Below are positions 228-38,151 of a stretch of DNA of 46,003 bases, piece after piece. Under the pieces are notes generated by a model, which worked only from the letters and a program-made list of their open reading frames with translations, did no database searches and was not told the DNA's origin. The DNA comes from JBDREC01 sp043820105 [NCBI: Pseudomonadota bacterium]. GTDB lineage: Bacteria > Bdellovibrionota_F > JAHFAK01. The stretch covers positions 1 through 46,003 of the forward strand of contig JBDREC010000024.1 of the NCBI GenBank assembly GCA_043820105.1, written 5' to 3'. A program made the translations under genes and the position numbers. Position 1 is the first letter of the stretch. The number at the start of each line of letters is the position of its first letter.

Positions 228-1469
228 TTAATCAATAATTGGATTAAATTCTTTGTAGATAACATTTGTTCCATTTGTATCATACATATAACTGCCAACT
301 AGCCTTCCTTTTGAATCAATATAGAATCCACCATCCTTTTGTCCATCTCCGTCTTCATCAAATCCAATTGATTCATAAGTTTTTCCATATCTTTCAAAAG
401 GAGTACTATTTGTTCTTGAATGTTTATCTAGGAAAGACTGGATAAGACTACTGCATCCTTTATGTGGATATTTATTTCCTTTACAGTCAGTCCACATTCC
501 AGCGCAATCCCAACCCGTACTAGTTGGATTTGAGGAACAATCATCAATAACTTGACCACAAGAGCTACTATCAGGATCTCTCATGCATTCACCATAATAA
601 AACCCACTGCTTTCTTCTACTGTTGATGTTGGTTCTTCCACCACTGCTGGCTCTTCTACTGGAGGAGCTTCAACCGCTGGAGGTTCAACCGCGGGAACTA
701 ATGCGGCTGGAGGTTCTTCATCTGGTGCTTCTTCTGCCGGCGGTTCTTCTGCAACTGCGCCACCTCTTGATGTATCGTCAGTAACAGCTGGAGTTTCTGC
801 TTCATCACTTCTTGCATCACAATAAGTATCAGCAAAATTTCCGATTGTTCCACCAACATTTGATATATCAAACTGTCCTATGAAACTTGCGCAAGTACAT
901 GAAATTCTATTTCCTGCATTTTTGCACAGTTCGCATGCTCTATCAAAATTATCTCCGCATAATCCTGGTTTTTTTGCTGGAGCCCGAGGACTTAATAATC
1001 CTGCTTCTATCATTGCTATCTGAATTTCTTTGTTTGCTTCTAGTTGAGCCAGTGCCATTTTTTGGTCGGTCTGAGTCTGGGCTGCCATTGCTGCTGCCAG
1101 GGCGGCCTTTTTATTGCCAACTCCAAGAGCAATGGCTCCGACAATTCCTGCTGTAGCGGTAGCTGCTGCTCCGCCTATGGCCACACCAGTTATTATTTTT
1201 TGTTCTTGTTTTGCTGCAGCCAATTTTTGTGCCATTATATCCTTTAACATTTTTTCCTGAGCTTTCATTTGCTTTTTTGCAAACTCTCTTGTTTCTTTTC
1301 TATGTCTATTAAGAGAGCTGAACTTTCTAAAATCTGCGTATCTGGGTTGATTATTTCCCATTTGTGCGCCTTGTGCAAATCTTCTTTGTTTTTCATTACA
1401 AGACGCGAATATAAATGAAAGCATGAGGATATATAAGAGAAAAGATTTTTGACTTGTAAGTAGTTTCAT
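228..1469 (-). CDS. Cysteine-motif lipoprotein, paralogue A
   Basis: This is a predicted lipoprotein of 413 residues with no known function. The start at 1469 is preferred: it has an AGGAG ribosome site about 8 nt upstream and begins a signal peptide (MKLLTSQKSF...) ending in lipobox FASC, followed by NEKQRR. The frame is open upstream to 1592, but that part only translates a heptamer array and a palindrome. The order is FRKFSSLNRHR, a long Ala/Gln/Lys helix containing a Gly/Ala hydrophobic stretch, then a C-x7-C-x2-C-x8-C-x-C motif followed by FDISNVGG. After this come a Pro/Glu/Val-rich linker, a second Cys-rich part, and a DEDGDGQKDGG segment that resembles a calcium-binding loop. It is a paralogue of the gene at 2365-3573. 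The envelope location is inferred from the lipobox. Confidence 0.8.
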   Translation of the reverse strand: MKLLTSQKSFLLYILMLSFIFASCNEKQRRFAQGAQMGNNQPRYADFRKFSSLNRHRKETREFAKKQMKAQEKMLKDIMAQKLAAAKQEQKIITGVAIGGAAATATAGIVGAIALGVGNKKAALAAAMAAQTQTDQKMALAQLEANKEIQIAMIEAGLLSPRAPAKKPGLCGDNFDRACELCKNAGNRISCTCASFIGQFDISNVGGTIGNFADTYCDARSDEAETPAVTDDTSRGGAVAEEPPAEEAPDEEPPAALVPAVEPPAVEAPPVEEPAVVEEPTSTVEESSGFYYGECMRDPDSSSCGQVIDDCSSNPTSTGWDCAGMWTDCKGNKYPHKGCSSLIQSFLDKHSRTNSTPFERYGKTYESIGFDEDGDGQKDGGFYIDSKGRLVGSYMYDTNGTNVIYKEFNPIID

Positions 1470-1553: not shown

Positions 1554-1597
1554 TCTTTTTGTTAAAAATATTATATGCAAATAAAGTGCCAAGAATG

Positions 1598-1790: not shown

Positions 1791-2365
1791 ATAATAAGTT
1801 TGGATCATCTCCAATCTGAGTACCCACAAAGAATAATTTTTTTAAAAAAATATAAAACATTGTTCCAACTATTCTATGATATTCAAATTGAAATAAACGG
1901 TTCTATCTATCTAAAACCCAAAGGATGAAGATTAGGAATTAAGATTAAGAATTAAGAATCAAGAGTTTAGAGGCAAGTTTGCAAGATCAGAAGAGTCAAG
2001 AATCAAGAAGGATTCATGCTCATAATCCTAGTCTTAATCCTAATCCCGTAGACCGAATGTGCTTTTTCGATATCTCACTTGGGTCTATAGCCGAAATCTG
2101 CGCCTGTCTTGACCTTCTTAACTCTTTAGATCTTGACTCTTTTTCTTCCTCTTCTATCTTACCTCTAAAAAAACAATACCAAACCATTTATTCCATGATC
2201 TTCAAATTGAAATAAATATTTCTATATATGAAACCATTGGATTAATCTTAGAATTATGATTAAGATGAGGCTTATGATTTTTACGCTTTTGTTCTCTGAT
2301 TTGACCGGAAACTGGTGCTCTATTGTTTGGGTATTCAAATTGGAGATGAACCATAAGTTTATTAT
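1791..2365. repeat. Inverted-repeat-bounded segment
   Basis: The left end (1791-1825) is an imperfect reverse complement of 2329-2365; the shared core includes ATTGGAGATGA. The right arm touches the stop codon of lipoprotein paralogue B. Inside lies the 40-bp direct repeat pair (1871-1910 and 2190-2229). No transposase or clear target-site duplication was seen, so it could be a decayed miniature element or paired regulatory sequence. Confidence 0.4.
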
Positions 2366-3573
2366 TATGGTGCACTATCTGTTTCCTGTGTATTTTTTTC
2401 TATAAAGGCATCAAAAGCCTCTTGCATTAATGTATTGCAACCATCAAAATGGCTAGATTCAGAACCATCTGCCTGGTATTTTATGCATCTACGTCCAGAT
2501 ATATTGTCTCTATAGTCACTAATTAGTTCATTAATATATTCAGTGTCGGGATTTTCGATAAGAGCAGTATCTAATAAAGATTGAAATTCTCTTCCTGTCT
2601 GAGTTTCAAAACATGTTTTGTCGTTTGGTAAGCAACATCCTAAAATAGCTTTGTTCTCTTTATCATCGTTATATGTTGGTGACCAAGAGCATGCTACATC
2701 TTTATCTGGGCTATCAAGGCTTATTGGGTTGTAAACTCTTGGGGTTGCTCCAGAAGCACCTTTTATGTACGTTGGTTTCCTGGTGATGGTTGAGCCACCG
2801 CCACTTCTTCCACTACCACTTTTTTTGCTTCCAGCTCCACTACGACCTGAGCTCGCTCCATCTCCTGCTTCGTCCTCTTCTTCTTCCACTGCCAAAATCG
2901 CCTCTTCATCAGATAAAACTGTATCACACATCGCTGCAATTCCTGCGGCTCCACCAACATACGAAATATCATATTTGCTGAGCTTTGCTGCACAGGCACA
3001 ACTTACTCTCACGTCGGCGTTTTCACAGACTCCGCATACATCTTCTAAATATTTATTGCAAAATGGGATTTTTTCTTTTGGGGCGGCTGCTCCCTGTCCA
3101 TAAAGTCCTTTTTTAATCAGGGCTAATTTTATTTCTGTACTTGCTTTTAACTGAGCAGTGGCGTACTCATTGGCTCTATCCTGAGCGTCTGCTGCAGCCT
3201 GAGCCATGGCATCTCTTCTATTTTTGCCTGCTTCAATCATTGCCAGTGTAATATCAGTTGCTGCCTTAATTCCGGTTCCTGTGATGGCTACAATTGCTTC
3301 TGTTTTTGCTTGCTGTTTTTGCACTTCTAGCTGCGCCTTAAACATATCCATCTGCATTTTTCGTTGTTGTTTTGCAAAGTTAAGATTAGGCATGGTTTGT
3401 CTATGTCTGTTTAGTGATCTGAATTGTCTGAATTTCTCAAGTGCTGGATTCATTCCACCGTTAATTTGAGGATTAATGATTCGTCTTTGTTTTTCATTAC
3501 ATGATGATATAGCAATAGCAATAATAGTAATTATTAGTAAGGTAATTGTTCTGTTAATTATTACTTTCTTCAA
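2365..3573 (-). CDS. Cysteine-motif lipoprotein, paralogue B
   Basis: This is a predicted 402-residue lipoprotein, paralogous to the gene at 228-1469. It begins at a TTG codon with AAGGTGA upstream. The signal peptide ends in lipobox ISSC and is followed by the same NEKQRR as paralogue A. Shared features in order are FRQFRSLNRHR, an Ala/Gln-rich helical region, the C-x7-C-x2-C-x8-C-x-C motif, then KYDISYVGG. An acidic tract and a Gly/Ser/Arg-rich linker follow, and the C-terminal part has GCNTLMQ, matching GCSSLIQ in paralogue A. The exact spacing of the five cysteines is conserved while linkers diverge, so the Cys region is probably the functional core. I recognise no domain. Confidence 0.8.
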   Translation of the reverse strand: MKKVIINRTITLLIITIIAIAISSCNEKQRRIINPQINGGMNPALEKFRQFRSLNRHRQTMPNLNFAKQQRKMQMDMFKAQLEVQKQQAKTEAIVAITGTGIKAATDITLAMIEAGKNRRDAMAQAAADAQDRANEYATAQLKASTEIKLALIKKGLYGQGAAAPKEKIPFCNKYLEDVCGVCENADVRVSCACAAKLSKYDISYVGGAAGIAAMCDTVLSDEEAILAVEEEEDEAGDGASSGRSGAGSKKSGSGRSGGGSTITRKPTYIKGASGATPRVYNPISLDSPDKDVACSWSPTYNDDKENKAILGCCLPNDKTCFETQTGREFQSLLDTALIENPDTEYINELISDYRDNISGRRCIKYQADGSESSHFDGCNTLMQEAFDAFIEKNTQETDSAP

Positions 3574-3734
3574 AGCTAAGTCACCTTAATAAATGATATA
3601 TACTAACACTTGTGCAAGTATAATGCCAAAAAATGTTGTGCAATAAAATCAATATGTTACTCACTCTTTGACTGAAGCTATACCTTAATATATGTGTTTG
3701 TTTAAAGCTTCTTTGGTGAAAATTCGGCAGTAGT

Positions 3735-4655: not shown

Positions 4656-5621
4656 CAGACTCACACACAATTTATTGTACTGCCCCCACGCTGCCTCTTT
4701 TTGCTCGCGAAGCTCAGTATTGCTTTCTTGATTTAAACTAGTTTTAAAAGCATTTAGAATTGCAATTTTTCTTGTATTTGTAACATTTCCAGATTCAATA
4801 AGCTTATCAAGTTCAGCTGCCAGGGTTTCATGGTTTTGCTTATTATTTAATAAAATTCTGCTTGAAATATTGGAGATTTCATTTGAATAATTTGTAAGGC
4901 CTTTTTCTAAAATAAAATCTAGTATTGGTTTTTCGATACTTGCCTGATTTTCCAAAATATCCAAAACCTTTACTGCAATTCTTAAACATCTTGCATCCCT
5001 GATATTTCCAATGGTGTTTTTTAACAAAGGAAAGAGAGTTTTTGCTATTACTTCGCCTTTTAGACTTCCTAATCCATTTTTATACAGGTTGTTAGTTCCC
5101 AGAACATCAATAATTAAGTTGAGAAATTTAAGCTCATTAGCTGACTTTTCATCAAGCTCAGAAATAACTAGCTCATCAAGCAGGATTTGGTTTAAGTATT
5201 TTATTAGTTCACTTCTGTATTGTTTGGGCAATAAATTAAGAACTGCTTTATTGTTCAAAATATCATAAAGAGCATCAATATTATCATTTGGGTTTCTGGA
5301 ATTTAGTTTTTCTGTAATCTTTGTAAAATTTTCTTCTATTAAATTTTCAAGATTTGAACCTTCAGTTTCAATTGCCTGAAGCTCTGCAATAGAAGCCGAA
5401 ATAGCATCTTTAACTATTTGCGAACTCTCTTTTTTTGAATTTAGTCTTTCAAAAAGAGCCATGAGGTTTTTTCGTGTGTAGTTTTCTTTTTTCCTAAGAC
5501 CAATTGCTGACCAAATACGAATGTCTTCACTTGGATCATCCAGGCATTTAATGAAGGCTTCAGCGCTCAAAGCAGATCTGTTTTCTGGCGAGTTTAATGC
5601 AATGATTGCATGCTTTCTGAG
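4650..5621 (-). CDS. HEAT-like helical protein, C-terminal part (downstream of a frame change)
   Basis: The first possible start in this frame is a TTG at 5570 (306 residues). However, the frame reads coherently upstream to about 5621 as LRKHAIIALNSPENRSA, a typical HEAT-repeat helix. It follows directly on the 5594-7747 frame, which shifts phase at a run of five A residues (5622-5626 on the plus strand). One additional A would join the two into a single protein of roughly 1030 residues. Content is alpha-helical and Leu/Ile/Lys/Glu-rich, for example IRIWSAIGLRKKENYTRKNLMAL. No enzyme motif is visible. The role is unknown; a scaffold is the usual guess for HEAT arrays. Confidence 0.65.
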   Translation of the reverse strand, partial: LRKHAIIALNSPENRSALSAEAFIKCLDDPSEDIRIWSAIGLRKKENYTRKNLMALFERLNSKKESSQIVKDAISASIAELQAIETEGSNLENLIEENFTKITEKLNSRNPNDNIDALYDILNNKAVLNLLPKQYRSELIKYLNQILLDELVISELDEKSANELKFLNLIIDVLGTNNLYKNGLGSLKGEVIAKTLFPLLKNTIGNIRDARCLRIAVKVLDILENQASIEKPILDFILEKGLTNYSNEISNISSRILLNNKQNHETLAAELDKLIESGNVTNTRKIAILNAFKTSLNQESNTELREQKEAAWGQYNKLCVSLF

Positions 5622-7747
5622 TTTTTATCTTCTTCAAATCTGGTGCCTTCTTCAATGATGAAAGCAGCTTCTTCAGCCCGATCTTCTGATCTTTCTTTAT
5701 CTTCAAAAGAATCATTAGGAGCCCACCTATCAAGATATTTCCCTAAAAATTCATTAAACTCCTCAATACTTGATTCAAGCTTTATCTTTTCTTTTTCTTC
5801 CAGTTCAGTTTCCATTGGAACCAGACTAGCATCAAATACACCACGTTCTTCCATTTGCGAACCCATTGCCCCTTCTCCCCTTGTTCTCTCAAACGCTAAA
5901 GCCCTCAACTCATCTTGATCTAATTTTTCATGAACTTTATAAAGAAAATGTTCATAAGCTCTTATTGTCAAAAGATATCTAAAGAGCGCTATCTTATCCT
6001 GCTTGCTTTCTATGTTTAATATCATTAGTTGTTTTACAATTGCTGGATTGTTTTCTATTTCATAAAGTATAAAATACACTGTTTCATTTATTGCTTTTTC
6101 AGACAAATCTATCAAATCAGCATTCTTTTCCACATTATTAAATTCAGCGATATTTGCAGACTCAAGAATTTGTTCTGCAAAACCAGAAGCTAGTTGAGCT
6201 CTTATATTTCTGATATTCATGTTATTTAACAAGGCATTTTCATAAATCCTGCTGGCTACATCTATCGCCTTTTTTACTGCCTTGTCTCTTTGATCAAGTA
6301 GTTTTGCTGCTTCTTCTGTTACATTTATTACCTCTCTTGCATTTGCTTTATCAATTGGAGCCAGTTTCTCTTTGTTAATATTTTTAAGTTCATTTCTGCT
6401 AATTGCTTCTTCTGCAAATTCATAGAGATCAATAAGTGTTTCGCCGGCGAGCTTATTAATTATATTACCAAGGGTCCTTTTTGCCTGGTCGCTAGTTTCA
6501 GCTTCAAACATCTTGTTTAATTCTTCCAGATTTTTTTTCTTTGTTTCATCTCCGTAGTTGTTCACTTCTTCTGCTAGAGAATATGCAGCCATTAAGCGAA
6601 CTGAGATATCTTGTGTGCTATTTAAAAGTGATCTTAAATATTCTATTATAGGTTCTCCACCTAAGGCATTTGTTCCCAGAAGCTCAACTGCCATAACCTT
6701 TGAAGTTTGTGCTCTTTTTATAGTTGCTAATCCCCAGCCTTTGCTTTCTTTATGTTCAATTAGATATCTTAAAAGGCTTCGAATTTCAGACTTAAACATG
6801 GGGTCTAATAATCTTATGTGTTCCTTTTTTTGATCTAATTCTTTTAAGACATCTTTTGTGTTTTGAGGGGCTTTTTTTAATTCTTTAATTATTCGTTTAA
6901 AATCTTTTTCAAAAATTATTTGAAGTTTTAATGAAATATAAGAACGATATAAACCCGCGCTTGAAAGTTCTGCCTGAAGAGCAGTTCTTATTTTAGCAAT
7001 TAAAATATTTGCTTCATAGCTTGTACGCTCTGACCAATGATCTGGTCCAATATTGCCTGAAGATCGATTTGGTTTAACATTATTGATTACTCTACTGGCA
7101 AGATTTTCATATCCTGGGAGGATTTCTTCATTTGTAAGTTTTATTCCATGCTCTAAAAGTAATAATCGAATCTGTTTTACTGAATGTTTTATTTCTTGAT
7201 TAAGGCTTTGCATATTTTCTCTTGAAAAATAATCATCATTGATTCTATTATCATCTGCAGATACCTTGCCTTGCTCCCTTATTATGCCAGTAATAGTTTC
7301 AATTGTCTCTTTTGATATTTGGCTTATGTCGCTTGAGAGCTCTAAAATATCTTTTGGAGCTTGTGGGGTTTCAATATCAGTATAGATTCTTGCAAAGGAG
7401 GCAATTGTTCTATCAATTTTTTCTTCTGCCGATTCAAAATTCTGATAAATCTCATCATTGACTTCGGTTTTGCCTTGCTCACAATCCGCGAAATAAAATT
7501 CAATTATTGCCCTGGTTTCAATAAGATTTTTCGCATTTTCAGGAATAAACTTTGTGGTTTTGGCAGATATTGAACTCACAATCTCAATCATAGTTAATAA
7601 GGTTATTAATCTTTTGTCAGTTTGAAAAGATGGATTTGAAAATGCATAATCTTTTAGCTGTTCATTTATTGTTTCTTCAAGGATGTAGTTTAAATTAAAT
7701 GCAATTGAAAAGGCAATGTTTCTATGTTCTTCATTGTTTTCTATAAA
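5594..7747 (-). pseudogene. HEAT-like helical protein, main part, 5'-truncated
   Basis: The only in-frame ATG is at 7591 (665 residues) and has no ribosome site. The frame stays open and protein-like for about 50 more codons upstream (FIENNEEHRNIAF, then NEQLKDYAFSNPSFQTDKRL) until TAA at 7748-7750, with no ATG, GTG or TTG. The true 5' end, and any signal peptide, therefore appears to be missing. The body contains a HEAT-like block (KVMAVELLGTNALGG, VRLMAAYSLAEEV), long helices and an acidic C-terminus. It ends at 5594 because of a frame change near 5622; one added A would connect it to the ORF ending at 4650. I call it disrupted, but an assembly misjoin or a homopolymer error could produce the same picture. 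Confidence 0.6.
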
Positions 7748-8039
7748 TTATAAAAGAAATTAGGCAAGATCCAGAGCTTATTAAAGAAATTGTTAATTTC
7801 TATAAGGCCTATAAGGAAGGAAGAAAAGGGTCTAATTATAATTTTAAGAAATTTACCAATGAACATGAATTTCTTCTTGGGATTACTTTAGATGCTGCCA
7901 GGCATCTAGAACAAGAAGGTAAGAGTTTTAATAAAGAAATTGAATTTATTGAAGAGGAGTTAGGGATTAGGAATAAAGGTGAACGATTAGGAGAACATAG
8001 GAATAATGGAAACTCCAGTATATGTATGAAGCTTTTTTA
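7747..8039 (+). pseudogene. Headless plus-strand ORF remnant
   Basis: A plus-strand frame follows a TAA at 7744-7746 and reads about 97 codons to TAA at 8037-8039. It has a protein-like composition (KEIRQDPELIKEIVNFYKAY, then EHEFLLGITLDAARHLEQEG) but no start codon near its beginning. Its first 70 residues look like a genuine helical protein. The last 25 (RNKGERLGEHRNNGNSS) look like translated repeat text. It begins exactly where the minus-strand HEAT-like gene loses its 5' end, so the two are probably truncated at a shared breakpoint. The family is not recognised. Confidence 0.45.
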
Positions 8040-8179
8040 ATTTAAAATCAGAGTTGACTGAGACACAAATTTCGTATGATTTAAATATTTGTATGCAATT
8101 GAGACTCAAAATCATCATCTTGAGCTTTTGTAAAAAGCAATAACTTGTTGTTATTAAACAGTATAAAAAAACCATGGAT

Positions 8180-8195
8180 TTGGCACACCTTATGC
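8180..8195 (+). promoter_or_regulatory. Candidate sigma-54 (-24/-12) promoter
   Basis: TTGGCAC is followed by TATGCA, with GG at 8182-8183 and GC at 8194-8195 separated by exactly 10 nt. This is the diagnostic spacing of the RpoN consensus TGGCAC-N5-TTGCA; the -12 box has one mismatch (TATGC for TTTGC or TTGC types). A transcript would begin near 8207 and run straight into the small structured RNA. No enhancer-binding protein gene lies in the window. Confidence 0.55.
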
Positions 8196-8206
8196 AATAG
8201 CATATT

Positions 8207-8280
8207 AATAGCTTTTTCATATTCCTCCTCCTTGAAAAAGAAAATTCAGCCAACATGGGACATGTTGGCTATTTTTGTTT
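8207..8280 (+). ncRNA. Candidate small RNA with anti-Shine-Dalgarno loop
   Basis: Between the sigma-54-like promoter and a strong terminator lies a sequence of about 74 nt with no ORF. An 8-bp stem (CTTTTTCA at 8212-8219 with TGAAAAAG at 8233-8240) displays a 13-nt loop containing CCTCCTCCT. That loop is a perfect complement to extended Shine-Dalgarno sequences. The architecture of C-rich loop followed by terminator hairpin matches known trans-acting sRNAs that mask ribosome sites, such as the CCUCCUCC-loop sRNAs of Alphaproteobacteria. It could instead be a leader or attenuator for the gene starting at 8313. Both readings are inference from structure. Confidence 0.55.
8248..8280 (+). terminator. 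Rho-independent terminator
   Basis: A perfect 10-bp stem (AGCCAACATG at 8248-8257, CATGTTGGCT at 8261-8270) with a GGA loop is followed by ATTTTTGTTT. It is one of the clearest intrinsic terminators in the window and lies 32 nt before the next start codon. It therefore either ends an upstream small RNA or attenuates the following gene. Confidence 0.8.
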
Positions 8281-8312
8281 GGGGGATATTAAATTTATTT
8301 TGGGGTGTTATT

Positions 8313-9824
8313 ATGAATCAGATAAATTCTAAAAGATGTTTTCTTCTTCTCTTTATTTTTACTTTATCTCTTCAATTTTCCGGACTCTTAATAGCCCAGG
8401 AAAGTTCACCCCAAGAATTGCGCGAAATCTTTGAAGCTATTGATGATGAAAATTATACTGAAAGAAAAAAAGTATCTCGGCAAATAGTCGAAAGGGCGGG
8501 TTATCATCTTAGGAATGACACTCCAACATTAGGAGCTATTATAAATCCTGATGCAGAGTTTAAGGATTTTAGATTAGGCAATCAGTTTTTAAAGATTCTT
8601 TTAGATAATCCCTATAAGGCTACAGCGTCTACTTATTTAGCAGCTTTCCAGCTATCAGGACATAGAATGACAGAGCTAACATATTCAGATAAAGCTCAGC
8701 AAAGACTTATTGATCTTTTCTCAAATGAATATGAACAGGGTGCTATTGGTAACATTCATCGCGTATATGCTGGATCTTTGATTTTGCAGCTACAAAGGAA
8801 TTCTAATAATACGCTTTTAATGAATACTAGTGATTTATTAATAAAAAACTTTGCAGAAGATATCAATTTTATTGATGCCTTTGTTGCAATTATAGGACTT
8901 TCGAATCATAAAGCTTCCCATACATTTCCTTATACTTTTGGAACCTGTTATGCAGGTCATACAAGATTAGTTTCTATTGCTTATCAGGTTACCAAGGCAT
9001 TGGCTGAGTTTGATGAAAGATACCAAAAATATGTTGAAGATTTTGATAAAGAGGTGGCATTATTTGAATCAGACCTGGGCTTTAATAATGATGCAATGGC
9101 TAGGTTTAAGTTTGATGTGAAATTAAAGAACCAAGATATAAATAATAATACTGCTTGGGATATTATGGATGTTGCTGAAACAAAGGAAAAAGATGAAGCT
9201 CTGAAATATCTAAAACTCATTATTGATAATGCAGAAAGAATTAATGATGGAATTGTAATGGATGCACTTTTAAAAATTCATAGTTTTGGTGAAGCCAGTA
9301 TAATTCCCGAAAATGTACAACTTATGTTAGTTTCTTCTTTTTTAGATGGAATAGATAGCAGTCAAAGAAAAATAAAACTTGGTGCTAGGTTATTTGCTGG
9401 AGTTTTAATTTTTCAATTTGCTGAAAACAAACAAAATAAAAAATTAAGACAATCTATTGATGGTATTGTTGAAAAAATGGCTGCTCAAGATGATCTCTTA
9501 AAAGAAATAGGCATATCATGGCAAGGAAAGAGGCTTTATGATGTTGCTTTACATTTTAGTGATAATCCAGAACTTGTTCCGTATTTTGAGCTTTTGGTAA
9601 GAATTGCTCAAGATATTGCATCTACACATCAAATGCTTCAGGATAGTGAGCGAAGAGAGCTTTGGACAAAGCTTTTTGAACAAATGCCAAGTTGGCCAAA
9701 CAGAGAATTTCCAGAATATTTGCTTTTAGAATTGAAAAGTTATCGTTCTGAAAAATTGAAATCTTTAAAAAACACTTCGATATCTTCTGCTGGTTCTTTA
9801 GGTTTTTGTATAAATTTATTTTAA
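8313..9824 (+). CDS. Secreted helical (HEAT/ARM-like) protein, unknown function
   Basis: The start at 8313 is chosen over the upstream frame start at 8145. It has a GGGGTG ribosome site and begins a clear signal peptide (MNQINSKRCFLLLFIFTLSL) that ends near GLLIAQESS; the upstream 56 codons run through the terminator hairpin. The mature part of about 475 residues is almost entirely helical, with repeated Leu/Ile/Ala patterns reminiscent of HEAT or armadillo arrays (LIDLFSNEYEQG, LKYLKLIIDNAERINDG). One HTFPYTFGTCYAGH segment is the only Cys/His cluster. It may belong to the same secreted helical group as the 4650-7747 and 26288-32527 proteins. It converges with the transporter, and the stop codons overlap. 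Periplasmic location is inferred. Confidence 0.7.
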   Translation: MNQINSKRCFLLLFIFTLSLQFSGLLIAQESSPQELREIFEAIDDENYTERKKVSRQIVERAGYHLRNDTPTLGAIINPDAEFKDFRLGNQFLKILLDNPYKATASTYLAAFQLSGHRMTELTYSDKAQQRLIDLFSNEYEQGAIGNIHRVYAGSLILQLQRNSNNTLLMNTSDLLIKNFAEDINFIDAFVAIIGLSNHKASHTFPYTFGTCYAGHTRLVSIAYQVTKALAEFDERYQKYVEDFDKEVALFESDLGFNNDAMARFKFDVKLKNQDINNNTAWDIMDVAETKEKDEALKYLKLIIDNAERINDGIVMDALLKIHSFGEASIIPENVQLMLVSSFLDGIDSSQRKIKLGARLFAGVLIFQFAENKQNKKLRQSIDGIVEKMAAQDDLLKEIGISWQGKRLYDVALHFSDNPELVPYFELLVRIAQDIASTHQMLQDSERRELWTKLFEQMPSWPNREFPEYLLLELKSYRSEKLKSLKNTSISSAGSLGFCINLF

Positions 9825-11206
9825 AAGCCAATCATAACAGCGATTGCTAAAAAGATAAAGGCTAGCAGGGATAGCAATAATTGAAGAGGCAAAATCCATT
9901 TTGCCCATGTTATCCAAGGAATTTTAGCTATTAGCAAGCATCCAAGCAAAACTCCATGAGTAGGATTAATCATATTTGTAAAGCCATCACCAAATTGAAA
10001 AGCAAGGACTGTGACTTGTCTTGAAACTCCAATTAAATCTCCAAGTGGCGCCATGATCGGAATAGTTAGGGCTGCTTGACCTGATCCAGATGGAACAAAG
10101 AAATTAATAAAAGTTTGAACAATAAACATAATCCAAGATGAAACTATTGCAGGCAAGCCTGAAGCTAGGTTTGATAGGTAATATAAGATAGTATCAATAA
10201 TATGGCCATCTGATGCTACAACTAAAATCGCGCGAGCAAATCCAATGATGATAGCAGCTGCTACCATGTCTTTAGCGCCTTCTGCAAAAGTCTCAGCCAT
10301 TTTATTTATTCCCATTCTACTGACAATTCCACAGACAAGTCCAATTGCAACAAACAAGGCAGCAATTTCTTCAATATACCAACCCCATTTCATAACGCCC
10401 ACAACAAGCATGATCATTCCAAGAGTAAATGAAATCAAAACAAGATAATGAGATGTTGTCATTTTTGTCTCTTCTTGATCAAATTCAGGATGCTCTTTTT
10501 TAAGTTTTAAGTCTGACTCATAGACAGGGCTAGCTTTAGGATTTTTCTTTATTTTTCGAGCATAAAGCATTGTGAAAATAATTCCAGTTGTTGTTATGAC
10601 AAACCAGCAAATTGTTCTATACCACCATCCAGATACAGGTGGAAGCTCTGCTATTCCTTGAGCCACTTGCACGGTAAAAGGATTTATCATTGCAGCTGAA
10701 AAGCCAAGCCCTGAGCCAACCCAAGCTATTGTTACAGCTACAATCGAGTCATAGCCAAGGGCAAAACAAAAAGGGATTAGTAGAATTATAAAAGGCAGAG
10801 TCTCTTCACACATCCCAAATACAGCTCCACCCATAGAAAAAAGAAGCATTAAAATTGGAATAATTAATATTTCATTTTTACCAAGTTTTTTAGTAATTCT
10901 TGTAATAAAGGTTGTTACAGCACCTGTTTTGTAAATAATAGCAAAAACACCACCCACTAAAAATACAAAGGCTATAATTTCAGCTACAGCTACCATTCCT
11001 TTTATTGGAGCTAATAAAAAAGCAAATATGCCTTGAGGATTTGATTCAATTCTGTGGTAAGAATCAGCAACAACAATGGTTCTGCCTGCTTCATTTTTCA
11101 TGGTATCAAACTGACCTGCAGGAATTATCCAGGTTAATGCAGCTACTATTGCTATAAACATGAAGATTAGGGCAATGGTATGAGGGATTTTGATTTTTTC
11201 TAGCAT
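9821..11206 (-). CDS. YfcC/DcuC-family anion or amino-acid transporter
   Basis: The 461-residue polytopic membrane protein has about 12 hydrophobic segments and matches the YfcC-like branch of the C4-dicarboxylate anaerobic carrier (DcuC) family. Family-like stretches are the N-terminal IPHTIALIFMFIAIVAALTW then IIPAGQFD, the GMCEETLPFIILLIPFCFALG region, AWVGSGLGFSAAMINPFTVQ, the VPSGSGQAALTIPIMAPLGD hairpin, and DGFTNMINPTHGVLLG near the end. The substrate could be a dicarboxylate, arginine/ornithine or another small anion; the sequence does not decide. An AGGAG site lies 6-7 nt before the ATG at 11206. The gene stands alone, and a repeat-filled region lies upstream. Confidence 0.85.
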   Translation of the reverse strand: MLEKIKIPHTIALIFMFIAIVAALTWIIPAGQFDTMKNEAGRTIVVADSYHRIESNPQGIFAFLLAPIKGMVAVAEIIAFVFLVGGVFAIIYKTGAVTTFITRITKKLGKNEILIIPILMLLFSMGGAVFGMCEETLPFIILLIPFCFALGYDSIVAVTIAWVGSGLGFSAAMINPFTVQVAQGIAELPPVSGWWYRTICWFVITTTGIIFTMLYARKIKKNPKASPVYESDLKLKKEHPEFDQEETKMTTSHYLVLISFTLGMIMLVVGVMKWGWYIEEIAALFVAIGLVCGIVSRMGINKMAETFAEGAKDMVAAAIIIGFARAILVVASDGHIIDTILYYLSNLASGLPAIVSSWIMFIVQTFINFFVPSGSGQAALTIPIMAPLGDLIGVSRQVTVLAFQFGDGFTNMINPTHGVLLGCLLIAKIPWITWAKWILPLQLLLSLLAFIFLAIAVMIGF

Positions 11207-11535
11207 TACTTGCTCCTTTGGGATATGAAAGAAACGGTAGTAAAATGGAAAAAATAATAGAAATCAAGGGAAAATAAGGGAACAAGAGCGCAAGGGAACA
11301 AGGGAACAAGGGAACAAGGGAACAAGGGAACAAGGATTAGTATTTGGTAATCAGGATTCGGTCATCAGTATTCGCGATCATACTGGTGACAGGTGCCACA
11401 TTGATTATTGATTGTTTTTTATAAACCCCTGGTAACGTGGCTCATGTTTCCTTGCGCTCCTGCGCTCTTGTTCTTTTTCCTCATTATATTTCTTTGACAA
11501 AAATATGCTCATTAATTAACTTATAAAAAAATAAA
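11207..11535. other. Intergenic region with repeat words
   Basis: No gene was found. The region holds the AAGGGAAC array, a poorly ordered stretch near 11340-11375 (TATTTGG, AATCAGG, ATTCGGT, CATCAGT), TTGATTATTGATTG near 11401, and an inverted copy of the GAACAAGAGCGCA core at 11451-11480. That copy could pair with 11278-11296 to form a long stem across the region. Confidence 0.5.
11292..11335. repeat. Octamer tandem array, AAGGGAAC x5.5
   Basis: Five perfect AAGGGAAC units plus AAGG lie upstream of the transporter gene. They are preceded by GGGAACAAGAGCGCAAGGG. That longer core recurs at 23101-23125 (with GCGT in place of GCGC) and, inverted, at about 11451-11472. Confidence 0.85.
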
Positions 11536-12006: not shown

Positions 12007-12066
12007 AATTTTTTTCTTGAATAACCTGTTTCTATATGTAACAAGGCTTCAATATGAATATTCGCT

Positions 12067-12101
12067 GTACTCCTTACGCCGTACGCTGTACGCTGTACGC
12101 T
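12067..12101. repeat. Heptamer tandem array, GTACGCT x3 plus degenerate units
   Basis: Two degenerate units (GTACTCC, TTACGCC) are followed by three perfect GTACGCT units. This is the reverse complement of the AGCGTAC array at 1486-1516, so the same word occurs at two loci about 10.6 kb apart in opposite orientation. It lies about 40 bp before the NifU-type start. Confidence 0.85.
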
Positions 12102-12360: not shown

Positions 12361-12756
12361 TTAATCAGTTGCACACATATTTTTTATATCATTCAATTCT
12401 CTTTTTATCTTGGTAAGAGCCTCTGTTGGAAAAGAGCCTTTACTTACTTCAATTACTTTTTCAACAATACTTTTTTCTTCAAGAATTGGATTGTTTTCTA
12501 GTAAAACCTTTTTTGCACCCTCAATTGTATATTTATCAGTATAAAGCAATTTATGTAATTTAAAAAAGAAAATTATATCATCTTTTCTATATACTCTCTG
12601 ATTTGCAGTGTTCTTAAGGGTTTTAACGTTGAACTCTGATTCCCAAAAACGAATAACTGATGTTTTAACATCTAAAAGCTTTGAAAGCTCTCCTATTTTA
12701 TAATAGTTCTTATTTGGGTTTAAGCCAGAGTTTACCAGTATGTCTGTTAATTCCAT
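12361..12756 (-). CDS. MerR-family transcriptional regulator
   Basis: The 131-residue protein has an N-terminal winged helix-turn-helix of the MerR type (YYKIGELSKLLDVKTSVIRF, FNVKTLKN, NQRVYRKDDI). A helical region follows (KLLYTDKYTIEGAKKVLLEN) and then a short C-terminal helix. No sensor cysteine cluster is present apart from one Cys near the end, so the effector is unknown and metal sensing is not indicated. Its start overlaps the stop of the DUF362 gene by 10 nt, so the two are probably translationally coupled and co-transcribed. Confidence 0.9.
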   Translation of the reverse strand: MELTDILVNSGLNPNKNYYKIGELSKLLDVKTSVIRFWESEFNVKTLKNTANQRVYRKDDIIFFFKLHKLLYTDKYTIEGAKKVLLENNPILEEKSIVEKVIEVSKGSFPTEALTKIKRELNDIKNMCATD

Positions 12757-13928
12757 TTTAAAGACCTCAATAATTTTAATAAAAAACCTTTTTTCATGTC
12801 AATTGCCTCTTCAGGACATGTTTCCTGACAGCAATAACATCTTATACAATTTTTATAGTCAATAAAAACTTTTTTATGCACTACTGACATAACCTTAGCA
12901 GGACAAATATTAACACATGTATTGCATAATGTGCAATCTTTATGTGAAATGTTTGGTCTATCTGTTATGAAGTTTTGAAGTAAGGGTAATAAGAATTTTG
13001 GAATACGTTCTGTTTGTATTGGAACAAGTGTTGGGATATCAAGATTTTTAAGATATGAATTTTCAGTACTATCTCCCAGGCATTGAATATCTTCAGTGCC
13101 ATATCCACTAATATTAAGAGATGCTAATATATCCAAATAAGGTACACGCTTTGGTGATATGTCAAGCATTTGACAAATTACATGGTCAATTGCAATGCAA
13201 TCTTGTCCAGTAATAATATAGCCCCAATCCCTTGGTGTGCCAGCAGCTGGTCCATTTCCTTCCATTATTGTTATCCCATCAACAATTGACAAGGAAGGTT
13301 TAACCTTTTTATAAATTGCAATTAAAAGTTCAGCAAAAACATTTTTTGAATCAGCAAGCTTTAGATGCCACTGTGGTTTTTCAAGACCCACAACAAGACC
13401 AAATAGGTTTTTAACAGACAGGGTCATTGTCATTTGGGCATGAGTTTTTACCTTAGCAAGGTTAATAATTTTATCAAATTCCATGGCTTCCTGTGAAAGT
13501 TCGATTTTTTTATACTTTGTATAAGCTATGTCATAAGCCTTTGGTGTCTGTAGTGGAGTAATTTTCACATCAAGTTTTTCAAGATCTTCAATGATATTTA
13601 ATTTTTTCAAAACACCCTTAAGTGTTCCAAATGCGGGAGAATCGCCAATTGATAAGTTGTGATATCCATGGTCCTTTAGAAGTTCAATTGTAGCTAGAAT
13701 TATTGATGGATGTGTAAGTATATGTTTTTCAGGAAGTGCAGGCCTTAAAAAGTTGGGTTTAATTAGAATTTTATCTTTTGCTTTTACAAAATTATCTATG
13801 CCTCCAATCAGTTTTATGGATTCTATAATTTTTTCTTTAATTATTGTTTTGTCATAAGTTGTACATTTTTTAATCACAATATTTTTTGAGGGCACGGGAA
13901 TTCTCAAGATAAATAAAATTGAAAGCAT
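12747..13928 (-). CDS. DUF362 protein with two C-terminal [4Fe-4S] ferredoxin motifs
   Basis: The 393-residue protein contains a DUF362 domain (KDKILIKPNFLRPALPEKHI, GDSPAFG, NLAKVKTHAQMTMTLSVKNL, IVDGITIMEGNGPAAGTPR). The C-terminus has a bacterial-ferredoxin pair with motifs CTLCNTCVNICP and CIRCYCCQETCP, which should hold two [4Fe-4S] clusters. DUF362 proteins are iron-sulfur proteins of unknown reaction, predicted to be cytoplasmic redox factors. The ATG at 13928 adds a hydrophobic leader (MLSILFILRIP). A GTG 11 codons later would give the more usual family start, so the N-terminus is uncertain. It is divergent from pilT. Confidence 0.88.
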   Translation of the reverse strand: MLSILFILRIPVPSKNIVIKKCTTYDKTIIKEKIIESIKLIGGIDNFVKAKDKILIKPNFLRPALPEKHILTHPSIILATIELLKDHGYHNLSIGDSPAFGTLKGVLKKLNIIEDLEKLDVKITPLQTPKAYDIAYTKYKKIELSQEAMEFDKIINLAKVKTHAQMTMTLSVKNLFGLVVGLEKPQWHLKLADSKNVFAELLIAIYKKVKPSLSIVDGITIMEGNGPAAGTPRDWGYIITGQDCIAIDHVICQMLDISPKRVPYLDILASLNISGYGTEDIQCLGDSTENSYLKNLDIPTLVPIQTERIPKFLLPLLQNFITDRPNISHKDCTLCNTCVNICPAKVMSVVHKKVFIDYKNCIRCYCCQETCPEEAIDMKKGFLLKLLRSLKWN

Positions 13929-14034: not shown

Positions 14035-15192
14035 ATGCCAAAAATTGATGCTTTCTTTAAGTTTATGGTTGAAAATGGATCAAGTGATCTTCACATGGCT
14101 GTTGGCGCACCGCCTATGATTAGGCAAAGTGGTGAAATGCGACCAATAAAGTTTAAAGAACTTACAAGTGAAGGCAATAAAATAATGTTCTATGAAATCC
14201 TCAATGATGTACAAAGAGAAACCTTTGAAAAAAGAGGAGACCTCGATTTTGCATACGAGATTGAGGGACTGGCTAGATTTCGTGGAAATCTTTTTATGCA
14301 AAGAAAAGGACCAAGCGCTGTTTTTAGGATTATTCCTTCAACAGTATTAAGTGCTCAACAATTAAACTTGCCTGAATCTGTGCTGCGATTCGCGAAACTT
14401 CACAAGGGAATGGTTTTAGTTACTGGCCCTACAGGGTCTGGTAAATCTACAACCCTTGCTGCTATTATAGATCATATTAATGAAACAAGAAGAGATCACA
14501 TTCTAACAGTAGAAGATCCAATTGAATTTGTGCATAAGAATAAAAGGTGCCTTGTAAACCAAAGAGAAGTTAAGGTTCACACCGAATCGTTTGCATCTGC
14601 GTTAAAGGGTGCACTTAGGCAGGATCCTGATATTATTCTTGTTGGTGAAATGAGAGATCTTGAAACAATAGAACTTGCTTGTACTGCAGCTGAAACAGGG
14701 CACTTGGTTTTTGGAACTCTTCACACTATCAGTGCACCGAAGACAGTTGACAGGCTTATTAATGTTTTCCCAATGGGACAACAAGACCAAATTAGAATGA
14801 TGCTTTCAGAATCAGTTAAAGGTGTTGTTTCTCAGACTCTTTGCAAGAAAAAAGGTGGAGGCCGAGTTGCTGCTTTAGAGATTATGTATGTTACCTCTGC
14901 TATTGCAAACCTAATTCGAGAAGGAAAGACCTTTCAATTAAAGTCATCAATTCAAACTGGTCGATCTCAAGGTATGCAAACAATTGATCAAGCCTTGATG
15001 GACTTATTGCAGAGTGAGCAAATAGAAATAGAAGAAGCTATGAACCACGCCCAGGAGAAAAAGCTCTTTGAAGGCTATCTTGCACAAAAGCCAAAAGAAA
15101 GACCCACGCTAAGAACAATGCCAGGCTCACAGGATGCAGGTACTATAAAAAAACCAGAAGTTGAGCAGGTTACAAAAAGACCTGGTACCTAA
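14035..15192 (+). CDS. pilT: Type IV pilus retraction ATPase PilT
   Basis: The 385-residue protein is a canonical PilT hexameric ATPase that depolymerises type IV pili at the inner membrane to drive twitching. Features in order are the N-terminal PAS-like domain (ENGSSDLHMAVGAPPMIRQS), Walker A GPTGSGKST (131-139), Asp box LTVEDPIEF, Walker B ILVGEMRD, His box GHLVFGTLHT, and the C-terminal VAALEIMYVTSAIANLIREG typical of PilT. All catalytic elements are intact. About 35 extra polar residues follow the usual end. The start has TAAGGT upstream. It leads a cluster with two degenerate homologues and a cNMP-domain protein. No pilin, PilC or complete PilB is in the window. Confidence 0.95.
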   Translation: MPKIDAFFKFMVENGSSDLHMAVGAPPMIRQSGEMRPIKFKELTSEGNKIMFYEILNDVQRETFEKRGDLDFAYEIEGLARFRGNLFMQRKGPSAVFRIIPSTVLSAQQLNLPESVLRFAKLHKGMVLVTGPTGSGKSTTLAAIIDHINETRRDHILTVEDPIEFVHKNKRCLVNQREVKVHTESFASALKGALRQDPDIILVGEMRDLETIELACTAAETGHLVFGTLHTISAPKTVDRLINVFPMGQQDQIRMMLSESVKGVVSQTLCKKKGGGRVAALEIMYVTSAIANLIREGKTFQLKSSIQTGRSQGMQTIDQALMDLLQSEQIEIEEAMNHAQEKKLFEGYLAQKPKERPTLRTMPGSQDAGTIKKPEVEQVTKRPGT

Positions 15193-15210
15193 GCTATAGG
15201 GGTTGCAAAA

Positions 15211-15242
15211 AAAACCAAGCCAATAGGTTTTGGTTTTGTTTA
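15211..15242 (+). terminator. Weak terminator-like hairpin after pilT
   Basis: AAAACCAA (15211-15218) pairs with TTGGTTTT (15230-15237) and is followed by GTTTAT. The stem is A/T-heavy, so termination may be partial and leave the downstream genes co-transcribed. Confidence 0.4.
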
Positions 15243-15278
15243 TATAAAAAATATTTTAATTTTATATAGGTAAATTAA

Positions 15279-16618: not shown

Positions 16619-16999
16619 AAAGGAACAGATGGAGAATCAAAGCTTGCAGTTGAAGTGATGAAGATGTGTGCTGATGTTAAGGCTTATATTACGGGCACTC
16701 AAGATGATGACAGGAAATTTAGCATTCGGGAGATTCTGGAAATGTTCAGAGAAACTATGCACACACAATCTCTTGACCAGTCAATGTCTGATTATTTGAG
16801 GAAAGGAGAAATAACAGAAGATGATCTTATGTTTAATTCTCCTGATGCTGAAGCTGTTATTCATAGACAGACAAAACTTGATATTAAACTTGGTACAAAA
16901 TGGGATCCAACGGGCGCTTTAATTCAAAAAGCACTGGATCAACAATTAGTTATGCAACAAACTAAAGAAGACTCAGAGGAGGAAGCAAATGCCTCTTAA
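16604..16999 (+). CDS. Degenerate PilT-like ATPase, C-terminal part in shifted frame
   Basis: This frame has only a TTG at 16604 and no ribosome site of its own, so it is not a separate gene. It aligns with the end of PilT: KLAVEVMKMCADVKAYITGT matches VAALEIMYVTSAIANLIREG, and the MHTQSLDQSMSDYLRKGEIT region matches MQTIDQALMDLLQSEQIEIE. It therefore continues the 15279 frame. Changing AAA to AAAA at 16619-16621 makes one ORF of about 570 residues reading CQNLIKGTDGESKLAVEVM. A polar tail of about 30 residues follows. The last codons overlap the next gene's start by 11 nt and contain its GAGGAGG ribosome site, which implies coupled translation. Confidence 0.7.
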   Translation: MPKPNKGTDGESKLAVEVMKMCADVKAYITGTQDDDRKFSIREILEMFRETMHTQSLDQSMSDYLRKGEITEDDLMFNSPDAEAVIHRQTKLDIKLGTKWDPTGALIQKALDQQLVMQQTKEDSEEEANAS

Positions 17000-18650: not shown

Positions 18651-18651
18651 A

Positions 18652-21661: not shown

Positions 21662-21715
21662 TAAACCAATTTATAAATAAAATTGAATAATTAAGTTAAA
21701 TTTAGGAGGGGGAAA

Positions 21716-23098
21716 ATGAAAAAGCTTACATGTGTAATTTTTATAATGTGTTTATCTTGGGCAAGTGCAAATTCAAAAATTGATTCCTATCTGGCAGATC
21801 ATTTTAGTGAACCTGAAAATGAAATAGCTAAAGTTTTAATTATGATAGATGATAGTGAAGTTCTTGATTATTATACCAATGAAATAAATGAATATTATTT
21901 TGATTATAAAACTATGGTTAGCATGTTGAAATATATTGAAGAAGAAACACAAAAGGATATTAGGAATGATCTTAATACAAAACATTATAACGGCGATACT
22001 TTAGTTGCTCCTGTTAAAACTCTCTGGAATTGTAATAGTATTGTGGCCTATGTAAATAAAAAGGGTTTGGCCTGGTTGACATCAAGGTCGGATGTGCAAA
22101 AAATATTATTGGATAGAGATATGCAAATAGAGCCAGGTTTTCCATCATTGTCACCATTTGAGGAGGACGATAAACCACCTGTTGGCTATACATATGGTTT
22201 GAAGAAAATTGGAATCGATAAACTTAATGAGGAAATGCCTTGGTTAACGGGAGAAGGAGTGCTTGTTGGAGTGATTGATTCTGGTGTTGATGGAACTCAC
22301 CCTGAGCTTGAAGGCAAAATTTATAAATTTAAAAACATGAATAGCAGTGATCCAAACGCATCTGATGATAATCCTGTAGATTACCATGGTCATGGAACTC
22401 ATGTGTCTGGAACGATTCTGGGGGGAAATCTAAGTGGCGCTCAAATTGGCGTGGCTCCAGGTGCTATGCTTGTTGCTTCGGCTGCTCTAAGTGGTTGGTC
22501 GCCATATTCAAATATTTTAGAAGCTATGCAATGGATCATGGATCCAGATGGAGATCCTGAAACAGCTGATTTTCCAAGAGTAGTTAATTGTTCCTGGCAT
22601 TCTGGCAATGCCCCATCTCAAGAACCTTTTTATAAAGCAATTGCAGCGTGGGAAGCAGCCAACATAGTGCCTAATTTTTCTGCTGGAAATGCTGGCGAAA
22701 ATGGCTTAACAAATCCAAAAGAATTTCCATCAACCTTTACAGTAGCAGCTACAGATATGAATGATCTTATTGCACCTTTTTCAAGTCATGGGCCCGCTAT
22801 TTACCTGGGAGATGAATTTATGAAACCTGAAGTTTCAGCTCCAGGCGTTGATATTTTTTCTTCATTACCTGAAGGAAAATATGAAAAGTGGTCAGGAACG
22901 TCTATGGCTGCTCCTCATGTTGCTGGAACTATGGCCCTCTTATTTCAAATTGACCCAGAATTAACAGTAGATGGAGTGAAAGAACTTTTAATTTCAACTT
23001 CAGTTGATCTTGGCGATGAGGGCTGGGATTATCGATATGGCTTTGGAAGGATTGATGCCTTTGCAGCAGCTGCGGAATTAATTAGTCGACTTTATTAA
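21716..23098 (+). CDS. Secreted subtilisin-family (S8) serine protease
   Basis: The 460-residue protein has a signal peptide (MKKLTCVIFIMCLSWASANS), an N-terminal propeptide-like region to about residue 150, and a complete S8 catalytic domain. The Asp is in GVIDSGVDGTH (D188), the His in HGHGTHVSG (H226) and the Ser in SGTSMAAPHVAG (S396). The oxyanion Asn region reads PNFSAGNAGENG. It ends in YGFGRIDAFAAA, normal for the family, with no C-terminal extension. It should cleave proteins in the periplasm or outside the cell. The N-terminal region (LADHFSEPENEIAKVLIMID) resembles inhibitor or pro-regions of bacillopeptidase-type enzymes. GGAGGGGG sits before the ATG. Confidence 0.95.
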   Translation: MKKLTCVIFIMCLSWASANSKIDSYLADHFSEPENEIAKVLIMIDDSEVLDYYTNEINEYYFDYKTMVSMLKYIEEETQKDIRNDLNTKHYNGDTLVAPVKTLWNCNSIVAYVNKKGLAWLTSRSDVQKILLDRDMQIEPGFPSLSPFEEDDKPPVGYTYGLKKIGIDKLNEEMPWLTGEGVLVGVIDSGVDGTHPELEGKIYKFKNMNSSDPNASDDNPVDYHGHGTHVSGTILGGNLSGAQIGVAPGAMLVASAALSGWSPYSNILEAMQWIMDPDGDPETADFPRVVNCSWHSGNAPSQEPFYKAIAAWEAANIVPNFSAGNAGENGLTNPKEFPSTFTVAATDMNDLIAPFSSHGPAIYLGDEFMKPEVSAPGVDIFSSLPEGKYEKWSGTSMAAPHVAGTMALLFQIDPELTVDGVKELLISTSVDLGDEGWDYRYGFGRIDAFAAAAELISRLY

Positions 23099-32527: not shown

Positions 32528-32863
32528 AACTAAAATTCCTTCCAATTGATAACTTTTGAAGTAAAATATATCCAAAAGATAAAATTAGTTCATTTGTTTT
32601 GCTAGAGCCATATACAGCAAAATAAATACCAATAATAATGCATGTATTATATGTAATAGAGTTAGAGGGTTAGACGCATTGATCGTTTTGTTTTTATGTT
32701 AAATAGCTAAAATTATCTTCTTTCAATATTTATTTTGCGACTTCCCTGTCGCAATATTTTGGTTTATTAATAATTTTTAATTGTGGTTTTGCCGGTCATG
32801 TTTGATAAATTAGAAAATTTTTTTTAAATGACTTGGTTTTACAGATTTATGTAAATATGGAAT
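32528..32863. other. Intergenic region upstream of the giant gene
   Basis: No gene is visible in 336 bp of very AT-rich DNA. The only clear structure is the hairpin at 32735-32754. It should contain the promoter of the giant minus-strand gene, but I could not pick one convincingly. Confidence 0.5.
32735..32754. terminator. Terminator-like hairpin
   Basis: A perfect 7-bp GC-containing stem (TTGCGAC at 32735-32741, GTCGCAA at 32748-32754) has a 6-nt loop. It lies about 110 nt past the stop of the alpha/beta hydrolase operon. A clean U-run is missing on the minus strand, so the function is uncertain. Confidence 0.4.
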
Positions 32864-38037: not shown

Positions 38038-38151
38038 GGTGTATCCAATTATTAGTACTGGGTTTGAGTTTGAGTAGTGGGGGGGTAAATTTTTCTTCTT
38101 TCTTCGGTTTTCTTCTTTTTCCTCAATACTCATTACCCTAACTCACTACTC

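What the first reader, a model, noticed from the sequence alone, without database searches (positions are those of the whole stretch)
8180..8280. Candidate sigma-54-driven small RNA with a CCUCCUCC anti-Shine-Dalgarno loop
Three independent signals line up within 100 nt. The first is a -24/-12 promoter with exact GG-N10-GC spacing. The second is an 8-bp stem showing CCTCCTCCT in its loop. The third is a perfect 10-bp terminator stem with a U-rich tail. There is no ORF. Such a C-rich loop could block translation of many mRNAs with strong AGGAGG sites, as known C-rich sRNAs do. It could also be an attenuator for the secreted protein gene 32 nt downstream. It lies immediately beside a rearranged locus.
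Basis: partly seen in the sequence, partly recalled or inferred. Interest (0 to 1): 0.75.

Follow-up and report, generated by a model that had tools for sequence, protein, structure and literature searches.

The report
Leader hairpin over reversed gene start
The supposed regulatory RNA loop is most simply the back side of an ordinary, apparently broken gene start, lying between a likely promoter and the exported-protein gene it probably serves; a short RNA may be made there, but nothing shows that it regulates other genes.

Summary
The elements are real: a -24/-12 site (8181-8196), an 8-bp hairpin with CCTCCTCC in its 13-nt loop, and a perfect 10-bp terminator with a T-rich tail. There the C-rich loop is AAGGAGGAGG, a Shine-Dalgarno sequence 6 nt before ATG AAA AAG CTA, so loop and left stem arm are the complement of a canonical start of an exported protein. 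That gene looks broken: its 77-codon frame mostly does not score as coding, and coding-like pieces lie in other frames beside a rearranged stretch. The promoter is probably genuine but points to the next gene: 4 of 9 sigma-54-like sites lie within 130 nt before a gene start (p 2e-4; 3 of 8, p 0.003, without this one), all four of exported or lipoprotein type. A 70-nt terminated RNA is plausible; trans-acting anti-SD action is unsupported. A cis fold masking the 8313 start is no better than shuffles. No close relative was found, so conservation, the decisive test, remains open.

The parts
8181..8196 (+). sigma-54-type -24/-12 promoter site TGGCACACCTTATGCA; transcription start inferred near 8207
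   Evidence: 1 mismatch; position relative to gene starts; start site inferred from spacing only
8212..8240 (+). 8-bp hairpin, loop 8220-8232 with CCTCCTCC at 8224-8231
8218..8232 (-). Shine-Dalgarno AGGAGG (8232-8227), 6-nt spacer, ATG (8220-8218): start of a minus-strand ORF; the C-rich loop is its complement
7987..8220 (-). 77-codon frame from that ATG; mostly not coding-like, probable remnant
8081..8170 (-). coding-like stretch in another minus-strand frame, ending at a stop
   Evidence: 20-codon scores 3.9 and 2.2
7747..8040 (+). coding-like plus-strand fragment without an obvious start; part of the rearranged stretch
   Evidence: scores up to 9.7; no Pfam or NCBIfam match at E 0.01
5594..7747 (-). 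gene whose frame stays open and coding-like upstream of its first ATG (7591) up to a stop at 7750-7748; probably 5'-truncated
8248..8280 (+). intrinsic terminator, 10-bp stem 8248-8270 and T-rich tail; the palindrome is also found on the minus strand
8313..9824 (+). 503-aa protein gene with a signal-peptide-like N-terminus (by eye); probable client of the 8181 promoter; no Pfam match
1576..1591 (-). comparison sigma-54 site, 0 mismatches, GC 108 nt before a lipoprotein-like gene
3613..3628 (-). comparison sigma-54 site, 1 mismatch, GC 41 nt before a second lipoprotein-like gene
32616..32631 (-). comparison sigma-54-like site, 2 mismatches with GG/GC intact, GC 87 nt before the start I took for a giant exported protein
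21704..21738 (+). start of the subtilase gene 21716-23098, which shares AGGAGGxGGAAxATGAAAAAGCT with the minus-strand start; best predicted partner of the plus-strand RNA among other genes

Best explanation
The stretch is the promoter and leader of the exported-protein gene 8313-9824, lying over the start of a decayed gene on the other strand. A sigma-54 promoter at 8181 starts RNA near 8207. That RNA crosses the antisense of an old strong ribosome-binding site and ATG (hence CCUCCUCC and UUUUUCAU), then meets an intrinsic terminator at 8248-8270. Much of the RNA probably ends there as a leader of about 70 nt, and read-through transcribes the exported protein. Shown: the sequence elements, the start on the opposite strand, the broken frames, and the placement of similar promoter sites before genes of exported proteins. 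Inferred: the transcription start, termination with partial read-through, and the absence of a trans-acting role.
For: Minus strand 8234-8203 reads CAAGGAGGAGGAATATGAAAAAGCTATTAATA. AGGAGG-N4-9-ATG occurs 4 times in the window against 1.57 in 30 shuffles: two are gene starts (16989, 21716), one lies inside a gene, one is this. The subtilase start at 21716 shares AGGAGGxGGAAxATGAAAAAGCT, 21 of 23 nt by eye. In 108 other loci (1.34 Mb) 5 of 6 distinct AGGAGG-N4-9-ATGAAA matches open frames of 100 aa or more. Reading frames around it are broken. Sigma-54-like sites with GG/GC intact and at most 1 mismatch: 4 against 0.9 in shuffles; at most 2 mismatches: 4 of 9 lie 12-130 nt before a start, p 2.4e-4, or 3 of 8, p 0.003, without this one. 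The sigma-70 scan lists no plus-strand match starting between 7623 and 8430.
Against: A strong terminator between promoter and gene is unusual if the promoter serves that gene, and fits a stand-alone short RNA at least as well. The promoter overlaps the first codons of the minus-strand ORF, odd if that gene was recently alive. The MKKLLI frame scores -7.3 to -8.4 in five of seven 20-codon windows (the last two -2.0 and 0.1), and another minus-strand frame is open straight across the SD (reading ..KEEEYEKAINM.., scores -1.3 and 0.2), so the GAGGAGGAA could be codons instead of an SD. The longer form AGGAGG-N4-9-ATGAAAAA had 0 matches in the 1.34 Mb, and AGGAGG-N4-9-ATG in general opened 100 aa in only 32 of 74. 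At most 2 mismatches, sigma-54-like sites as such are not clearly in excess (9 against 6.1 +/- 2.3), and one perfect site lies inside a gene. The 130-nt limit was chosen after I had seen the sites.
Confidence: 0.5

Rival explanations
1. One reading: a free-standing sigma-54-dependent small RNA of about 70 nt whose CCUCCUCC loop pairs with the Shine-Dalgarno sequences of several mRNAs and blocks their translation in trans.
For: Promoter and terminator at small-RNA spacing; two-hairpin fold with the C-rich loop unpaired. Among 30 gene starts the loop pairs best with 21716 (subtilase, -19.6 kcal/mol) and 16989 (-16.1); the longer stretch pairs with 21716 at -34.2. Anti-SD loop RNAs exist (passages of PMC10746234 and PMC3927594).
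Against: The C-rich stretch is the exact complement of an SD on the other strand, and its own antisense is its best partner (-27.0), so pairing with other SDs is automatic. Only 2 of the 30 gene starts examined carry AGGAGG. One loop motif, not the several hairpins of the known family. No Rfam match at gathering score. No conservation evidence could be had.
Confidence: 0.17
2. A cis-acting leader: the C-rich stretch masks the ribosome-binding site and start codon of gene 8313 in read-through RNA, or the hairpins form an attenuator that switches between termination and read-through.
For: The MFE of 8207-8330 pairs the C-rich stretch and UUCAUA with GGGGG, GGGG and UAUGAA at the 8313 start (-30.7 kcal/mol; z -2.30, 4 of 200 shuffles as good). 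The terminator lies in the leader of a gene for which no sigma-70-like site is listed.
Against: With the terminator kept, shuffling the left side, the right side or both gives folds as good in 129, 150 and 175 of 500 cases; the left-right duplex is matched by 499 and 365 of 1000 shuffles, so the z-score reflects the terminator. No fold competing with the terminator's 5' arm appears in the RNA up to 8260.
Confidence: 0.12
3. A cis-antisense RNA: the plus-strand RNA pairs with the translation start of a still-expressed minus-strand mRNA and blocks it, in the manner of antisense-controlled small membrane peptides.
For: Perfect complementarity to the SD and ATG by construction; both strands can fold the region into a hairpin.
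Against: The minus-strand frame of 77 codons is mostly not coding-like and the surrounding frames are broken; any RNA made from the plus strand here would be complementary, so the pairing itself is no evidence.
Confidence: 0.08

Closest known systems
NfeR1 / alpha-r14 anti-SD small RNAs of Rhizobiales (CcsR and cuckoo RNAs recalled as related; seen only in search listings)
   Same: A CCUCCUCC-type anti-Shine-Dalgarno motif in the loop of a small hairpin with a variable stem (passages of PMC10746234 and PMC3927594).
   Different: Those carry CCUCCUCCC in three (or, in a second family, four) hairpins and are conserved among Rhizobiales; here there is one hairpin with CCUCCUCCU, and the motif is the complement of an SD. 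NfeR1 is described as LsrB-activated and NtrC-repressed, not as sigma-54-driven, in the passages seen.
CJnc230 of Campylobacter jejuni (RpoN-dependent small RNA with a putative anti-SD stretch)
   Same: Sigma-54 control and a possible anti-SD sequence in a short RNA (passages of PMC11187230).
   Different: 98 nt, anti-SD CCUU in a single-stranded 12-nt stretch between two stem-loops, conserved downstream of flgE; here the motif is in a hairpin loop, upstream of an exported-protein gene, and without known conservation.
Sigma-54 promoters before genes of exported proteins
   Same: GG-N10-GC element 41-118 nt before the start, as for three other genes of the window.
   Different: Only here does a strong terminator hairpin with a U-rich tail on the transcript strand stand between promoter and gene, as far as the four leaders were inspected (the 32616 leader by eye only).

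Membership tests
alpha-r14 / NfeR1 anti-SD small RNAs | several hairpins, each with CCUCCUCCC in the unpaired part | tested here: not met
   one hairpin, loop UAUUCCUCCUCCU; definition from passages
alpha-r14 / NfeR1 anti-SD small RNAs | match to a described RNA family | tested here: not met
   Rfam 15 at gathering scores: only a tRNA in the window; whether this family is in Rfam was not checked
sigma-54-dependent small RNA | -24/-12 promoter with GG-N10-GC | tested here: met
sigma-54-dependent small RNA | intrinsic terminator at the 3' end | tested here: met
sigma-54-dependent small RNA | a discrete, RpoN-dependent transcript | not testable with these tools
   no expression data; no genome held to look for rpoN
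sigma-54-dependent small RNA | conservation with compensatory changes in relatives | tested here: inconclusive
   no close relative found
start of a protein-coding gene (minus strand) | SD at proper spacing before ATG | tested here: met
   AGGAGG, 6 nt, ATG
start of a protein-coding gene (minus strand) | coding-like open frame after the start | tested here: not met
   77 codons; scores -7.3 to -8.4 in five of seven windows, -2.0 and 0.1 in the others, against 4.9 +/- 4.2 in genes and -11.4 +/- 6.5 off frame; fits a remnant, not a live gene
transcription attenuator | alternative fold that prevents the terminator | tested here: not met
   the RNA up to 8260 folds into the first hairpin, leaving the terminator's 5' arm free of it

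The most novel reading that the evidence does not exclude
A sigma-54-dependent RNA of about 70 nt, born from the antisense side of a dead gene's ribosome-binding site, has been recruited as a trans-acting anti-SD regulator of an exported-protein regulon. Its best target in the window would be the subtilase gene 21716, whose SD, start codon and first codons it could pair with almost throughout (-34.2 kcal/mol). It would show how an anti-SD small RNA can arise directly from a reversed gene start.
Probability: 0.1. Interest if true: 0.65.

Novelty: new member of a known kind. Interest (0 to 1): 0.2.

Why it matters
It shows that a C-rich 'anti-Shine-Dalgarno' stretch should be checked against an SD and start codon on the opposite strand before it is called a small-RNA seed. 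If the bold reading were true, it would give a simple route by which anti-SD small RNAs originate. The sigma-54-like sites before exported-protein genes are a modest but testable regulon prediction for an organism without close relatives in the collections that I could search.

Tried and rejected
Cis-sequestration of the 8313 start by the C-rich stretch looked attractive in the MFE but fails against shuffles that keep the terminator. Attenuation: no fold competing with the terminator's 5' arm in the RNA up to 8260.

Search for relatives: the 8313 protein in viral contigs (1 stretch matched a pattern, none a relative); blastn of 8130-8320 against phages (no match); a 24-nt stretch of the hairpin as an exact pattern in viral contigs (0); PilT in genome contigs (258 relatives, the best 80 kept, best segment identity 65%). 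Of 30 window proteins run against those 80 loci, the loci with three or more matched proteins shared the pilus ATPases, a CRP-like gene or single scattered matches, not the surroundings of 8180. Protein 12747-13928 in one genome: best match 33% identity. The PilT-like protein 15279-16658 in 22 genomes: all 22 matched, best 130 bits, only the ATPase part. The MshEN protein 16989-18650: at most 27% identity in 4 of 148 and 3 of 99 genomes (E 1e-25) and 3 of 118 (E 1e-30), overlapping draws of one phylum; 0 of 140, 0 of 145, 0 of 119 and 0 of 68 elsewhere (E 1e-30). So the organism's phylum is not identified and conservation is untested.

Papers: 4 searches, passages of three papers (PMC10746234, PMC11187230, PMC3927594) and starts of abstracts in the listings; no whole paper or section was read.

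Full report
Observation. The -24/-12 site TGGCACACCTTATGCA (8181-8196) has one mismatch to the recalled consensus and exact GG-N10-GC spacing. The hairpin 8212-8240 has 8 pairs and a 13-nt loop with CCTCCTCC. The terminator 8248-8270 has 10 perfect pairs and the tail ATTTTTGTTT. Both hairpins are in the MFE and centroid fold of 8205-8282 (-20.1 kcal/mol, z -2.88, 2 of 200 shuffles as good). As single features they are only mildly unusual: 3 perfect inverted repeats of at least 10 bp against 1.07 expected, 41 of at least 8 bp with loops of 3-16 against 26.6 expected, with one palindrome able to count more than once, one CCTCCTCC against 0.37 expected.

What was missed. Minus strand 8234-8203 reads CAAGGAGGAGGAATATGAAAAAGCTATTAATA: AGGAGG at 8232-8227, a 6-nt spacer, and ATG at 8220-8218 followed by Lys-Lys-Leu, a usual beginning of exported proteins (general knowledge). 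The C-rich loop is the complement of that Shine-Dalgarno sequence, and the left stem arm CTTTTTCA is the complement of TG-AAA-AAG in the start. AGGAGG-N4-9-ATG occurs 4 times in the window against 1.57 in 30 shuffles; two of the four are gene starts (16989 and the subtilase 21716), one lies inside a gene, one is this. The 21716 start shares AGGAGGxGGAAxATGAAAAAGCT with it, 21 of 23 nt by eye. In 108 other loci (1.34 Mb) 5 of 6 distinct AGGAGG-N4-9-ATGAAA matches open at least 100 aa and the sixth 74. In general AGGAGG-N4-9-ATG does so in 32 of 74, and the longer form with ATGAAAAA had no match there, so this control is small.

State of the minus-strand gene. From 8220 the frame runs 77 codons to 7987. 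It scores -7.3 to -8.4 in five of seven 20-codon windows and -2.0 and 0.1 in the last two (genes 4.9 +/- 4.2, wrong frames -11.4 +/- 6.5). A second minus-strand frame is open from 8245 across the SD (..KEEEYEKAINM.., scores -1.3 and 0.2), drops to -8.2 at 8200 and is coding-like from 8170 (3.9, 2.2) to a stop at 8083-8081; on that frame the GAGGAGGAA would be codons, which speaks against the SD reading and is not excluded. Gene 5594-7591 stays open and coding-like upstream of its first ATG to 7747, where a stop ends it (scores 2.1 to 5.3). Between lies a plus-strand fragment without an obvious start (7747-8040, scores up to 9.7), with no Pfam or NCBIfam match at E 0.01 (all frames; families). 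This fits the remnant start of an exported-protein gene broken by rearrangement; that it once belonged to gene 5594-7591 is inference.

The promoter. Sites with GG/GC intact: 4 with at most 1 mismatch against 0.9 in shuffles, 9 with at most 2 against 6.1 +/- 2.3. Of the 9, 4 lie 12-130 nt before a start on the same strand, where 3.9% of strand positions qualify (binomial p 2.4e-4; at most 1 mismatch 3 of 4; without the site at issue 3 of 8, p 0.003). The four genes are two lipoprotein-like genes sharing SCNEKQRR, gene 8313 and the giant gene 26288-32530, all with export-signal-like beginnings judged by eye. The 130-nt limit was chosen after seeing the sites, and the giant gene's start is my choice among possible starts (the listing begins at 32575, which would also qualify). 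One perfect site (17420-17435) lies inside a gene. The sigma-70 scan lists no plus-strand match that starts between 7623 and 8430. The promoter is therefore probably real and probably serves 8313, whose start is 118 nt from its GC.

The RNA. A start near 8207 (inferred) and an end near 8276 give about 70 nt. Only 42 nt lie between the terminator stem and the 8313 start codon, so expression of 8313 from this promoter needs read-through. No switch could be shown: the first hairpin does not compete with the terminator's 5' arm. The long-range fold in which the C-rich stretch masks the 8313 start (-30.7 kcal/mol; z -2.30) is no better than controls with the terminator kept and the left, right or both sides shuffled (129, 150 and 175 of 500 as good).

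Targets. Against 30 gene starts plus its own antisense ORF, the loop pairs best with its own antisense (-27.0), then 21716 (-19.6), 16989 (-16.1), 8313 (-12.5) and 40953 (-12.3). The stretch 8207-8246 against 25 starts is best with 21716 (-34.2) and 20234 (-23.2); 600 antisense-start by start pairs have mean -10.3, sd 4.0. The 21716 value follows from the shared start sequence. It is the one result that the bold small-RNA reading can claim, and it does not separate the readings.

Comparison with known RNAs. Loops with CCUCCUCCC mark the NfeR1/alpha-r14 RNAs, with three hairpins, and a second family with four (passages). CJnc230 combines RpoN dependence and a putative anti-SD stretch, CCUU in a single-stranded region (passages). 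The present element lacks the several hairpins of the first and shares only control and idea with the second. Rfam at gathering scores gives only a tRNA in the window.

Limits. No genome is held for the window. I rate a short terminated transcript as plausible, a trans-acting anti-SD regulator as unlikely, and the reversed gene start with a sigma-54 leader as the best single account.

Noticed in passing
228-1469 (-) and 2365-3573 (-): Two lipoprotein-like genes sharing SCNEKQRR and a FRxFxSLNRHR stretch, each with a sigma-54-like site upstream; only insignificant or below-cut-off family matches.
   Followed up: partly
14035-19095 (+): PilT gene followed by a PilT-like gene, a short ORF, an MshEN-domain gene with a weak T2SSE match, and a CRP-like gene; PilT and CRP-like genes also lie together in L001 and L007, in L001 with an MshEN-type relative.
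   Followed up: partly
1486-1516 and 12064-12101: Inverted copies of a GTACGCT/AGCGTAC repeat tract, 27 nt perfect, 10.5 kb apart; the first lies in the leader of the lipoprotein-like gene 228-1469.
   Followed up: no
11273-11335: Tandem 8-nt repeats (AACAAGGG type) upstream of the DcuC-type transporter gene 9821-11206 (-), with related copies at 1683 and 23096.
   Followed up: no
37690-38133 (-): Gene for a 23S rRNA-intervening-sequence-type protein (Pfam E 1e-25) with no rRNA match in the window.
   Followed up: no
9821-9824: Genes 8313-9824 (+) and 9821-11206 (-) converge with overlapping ends; the scan lists no terminator between them.
   Followed up: no
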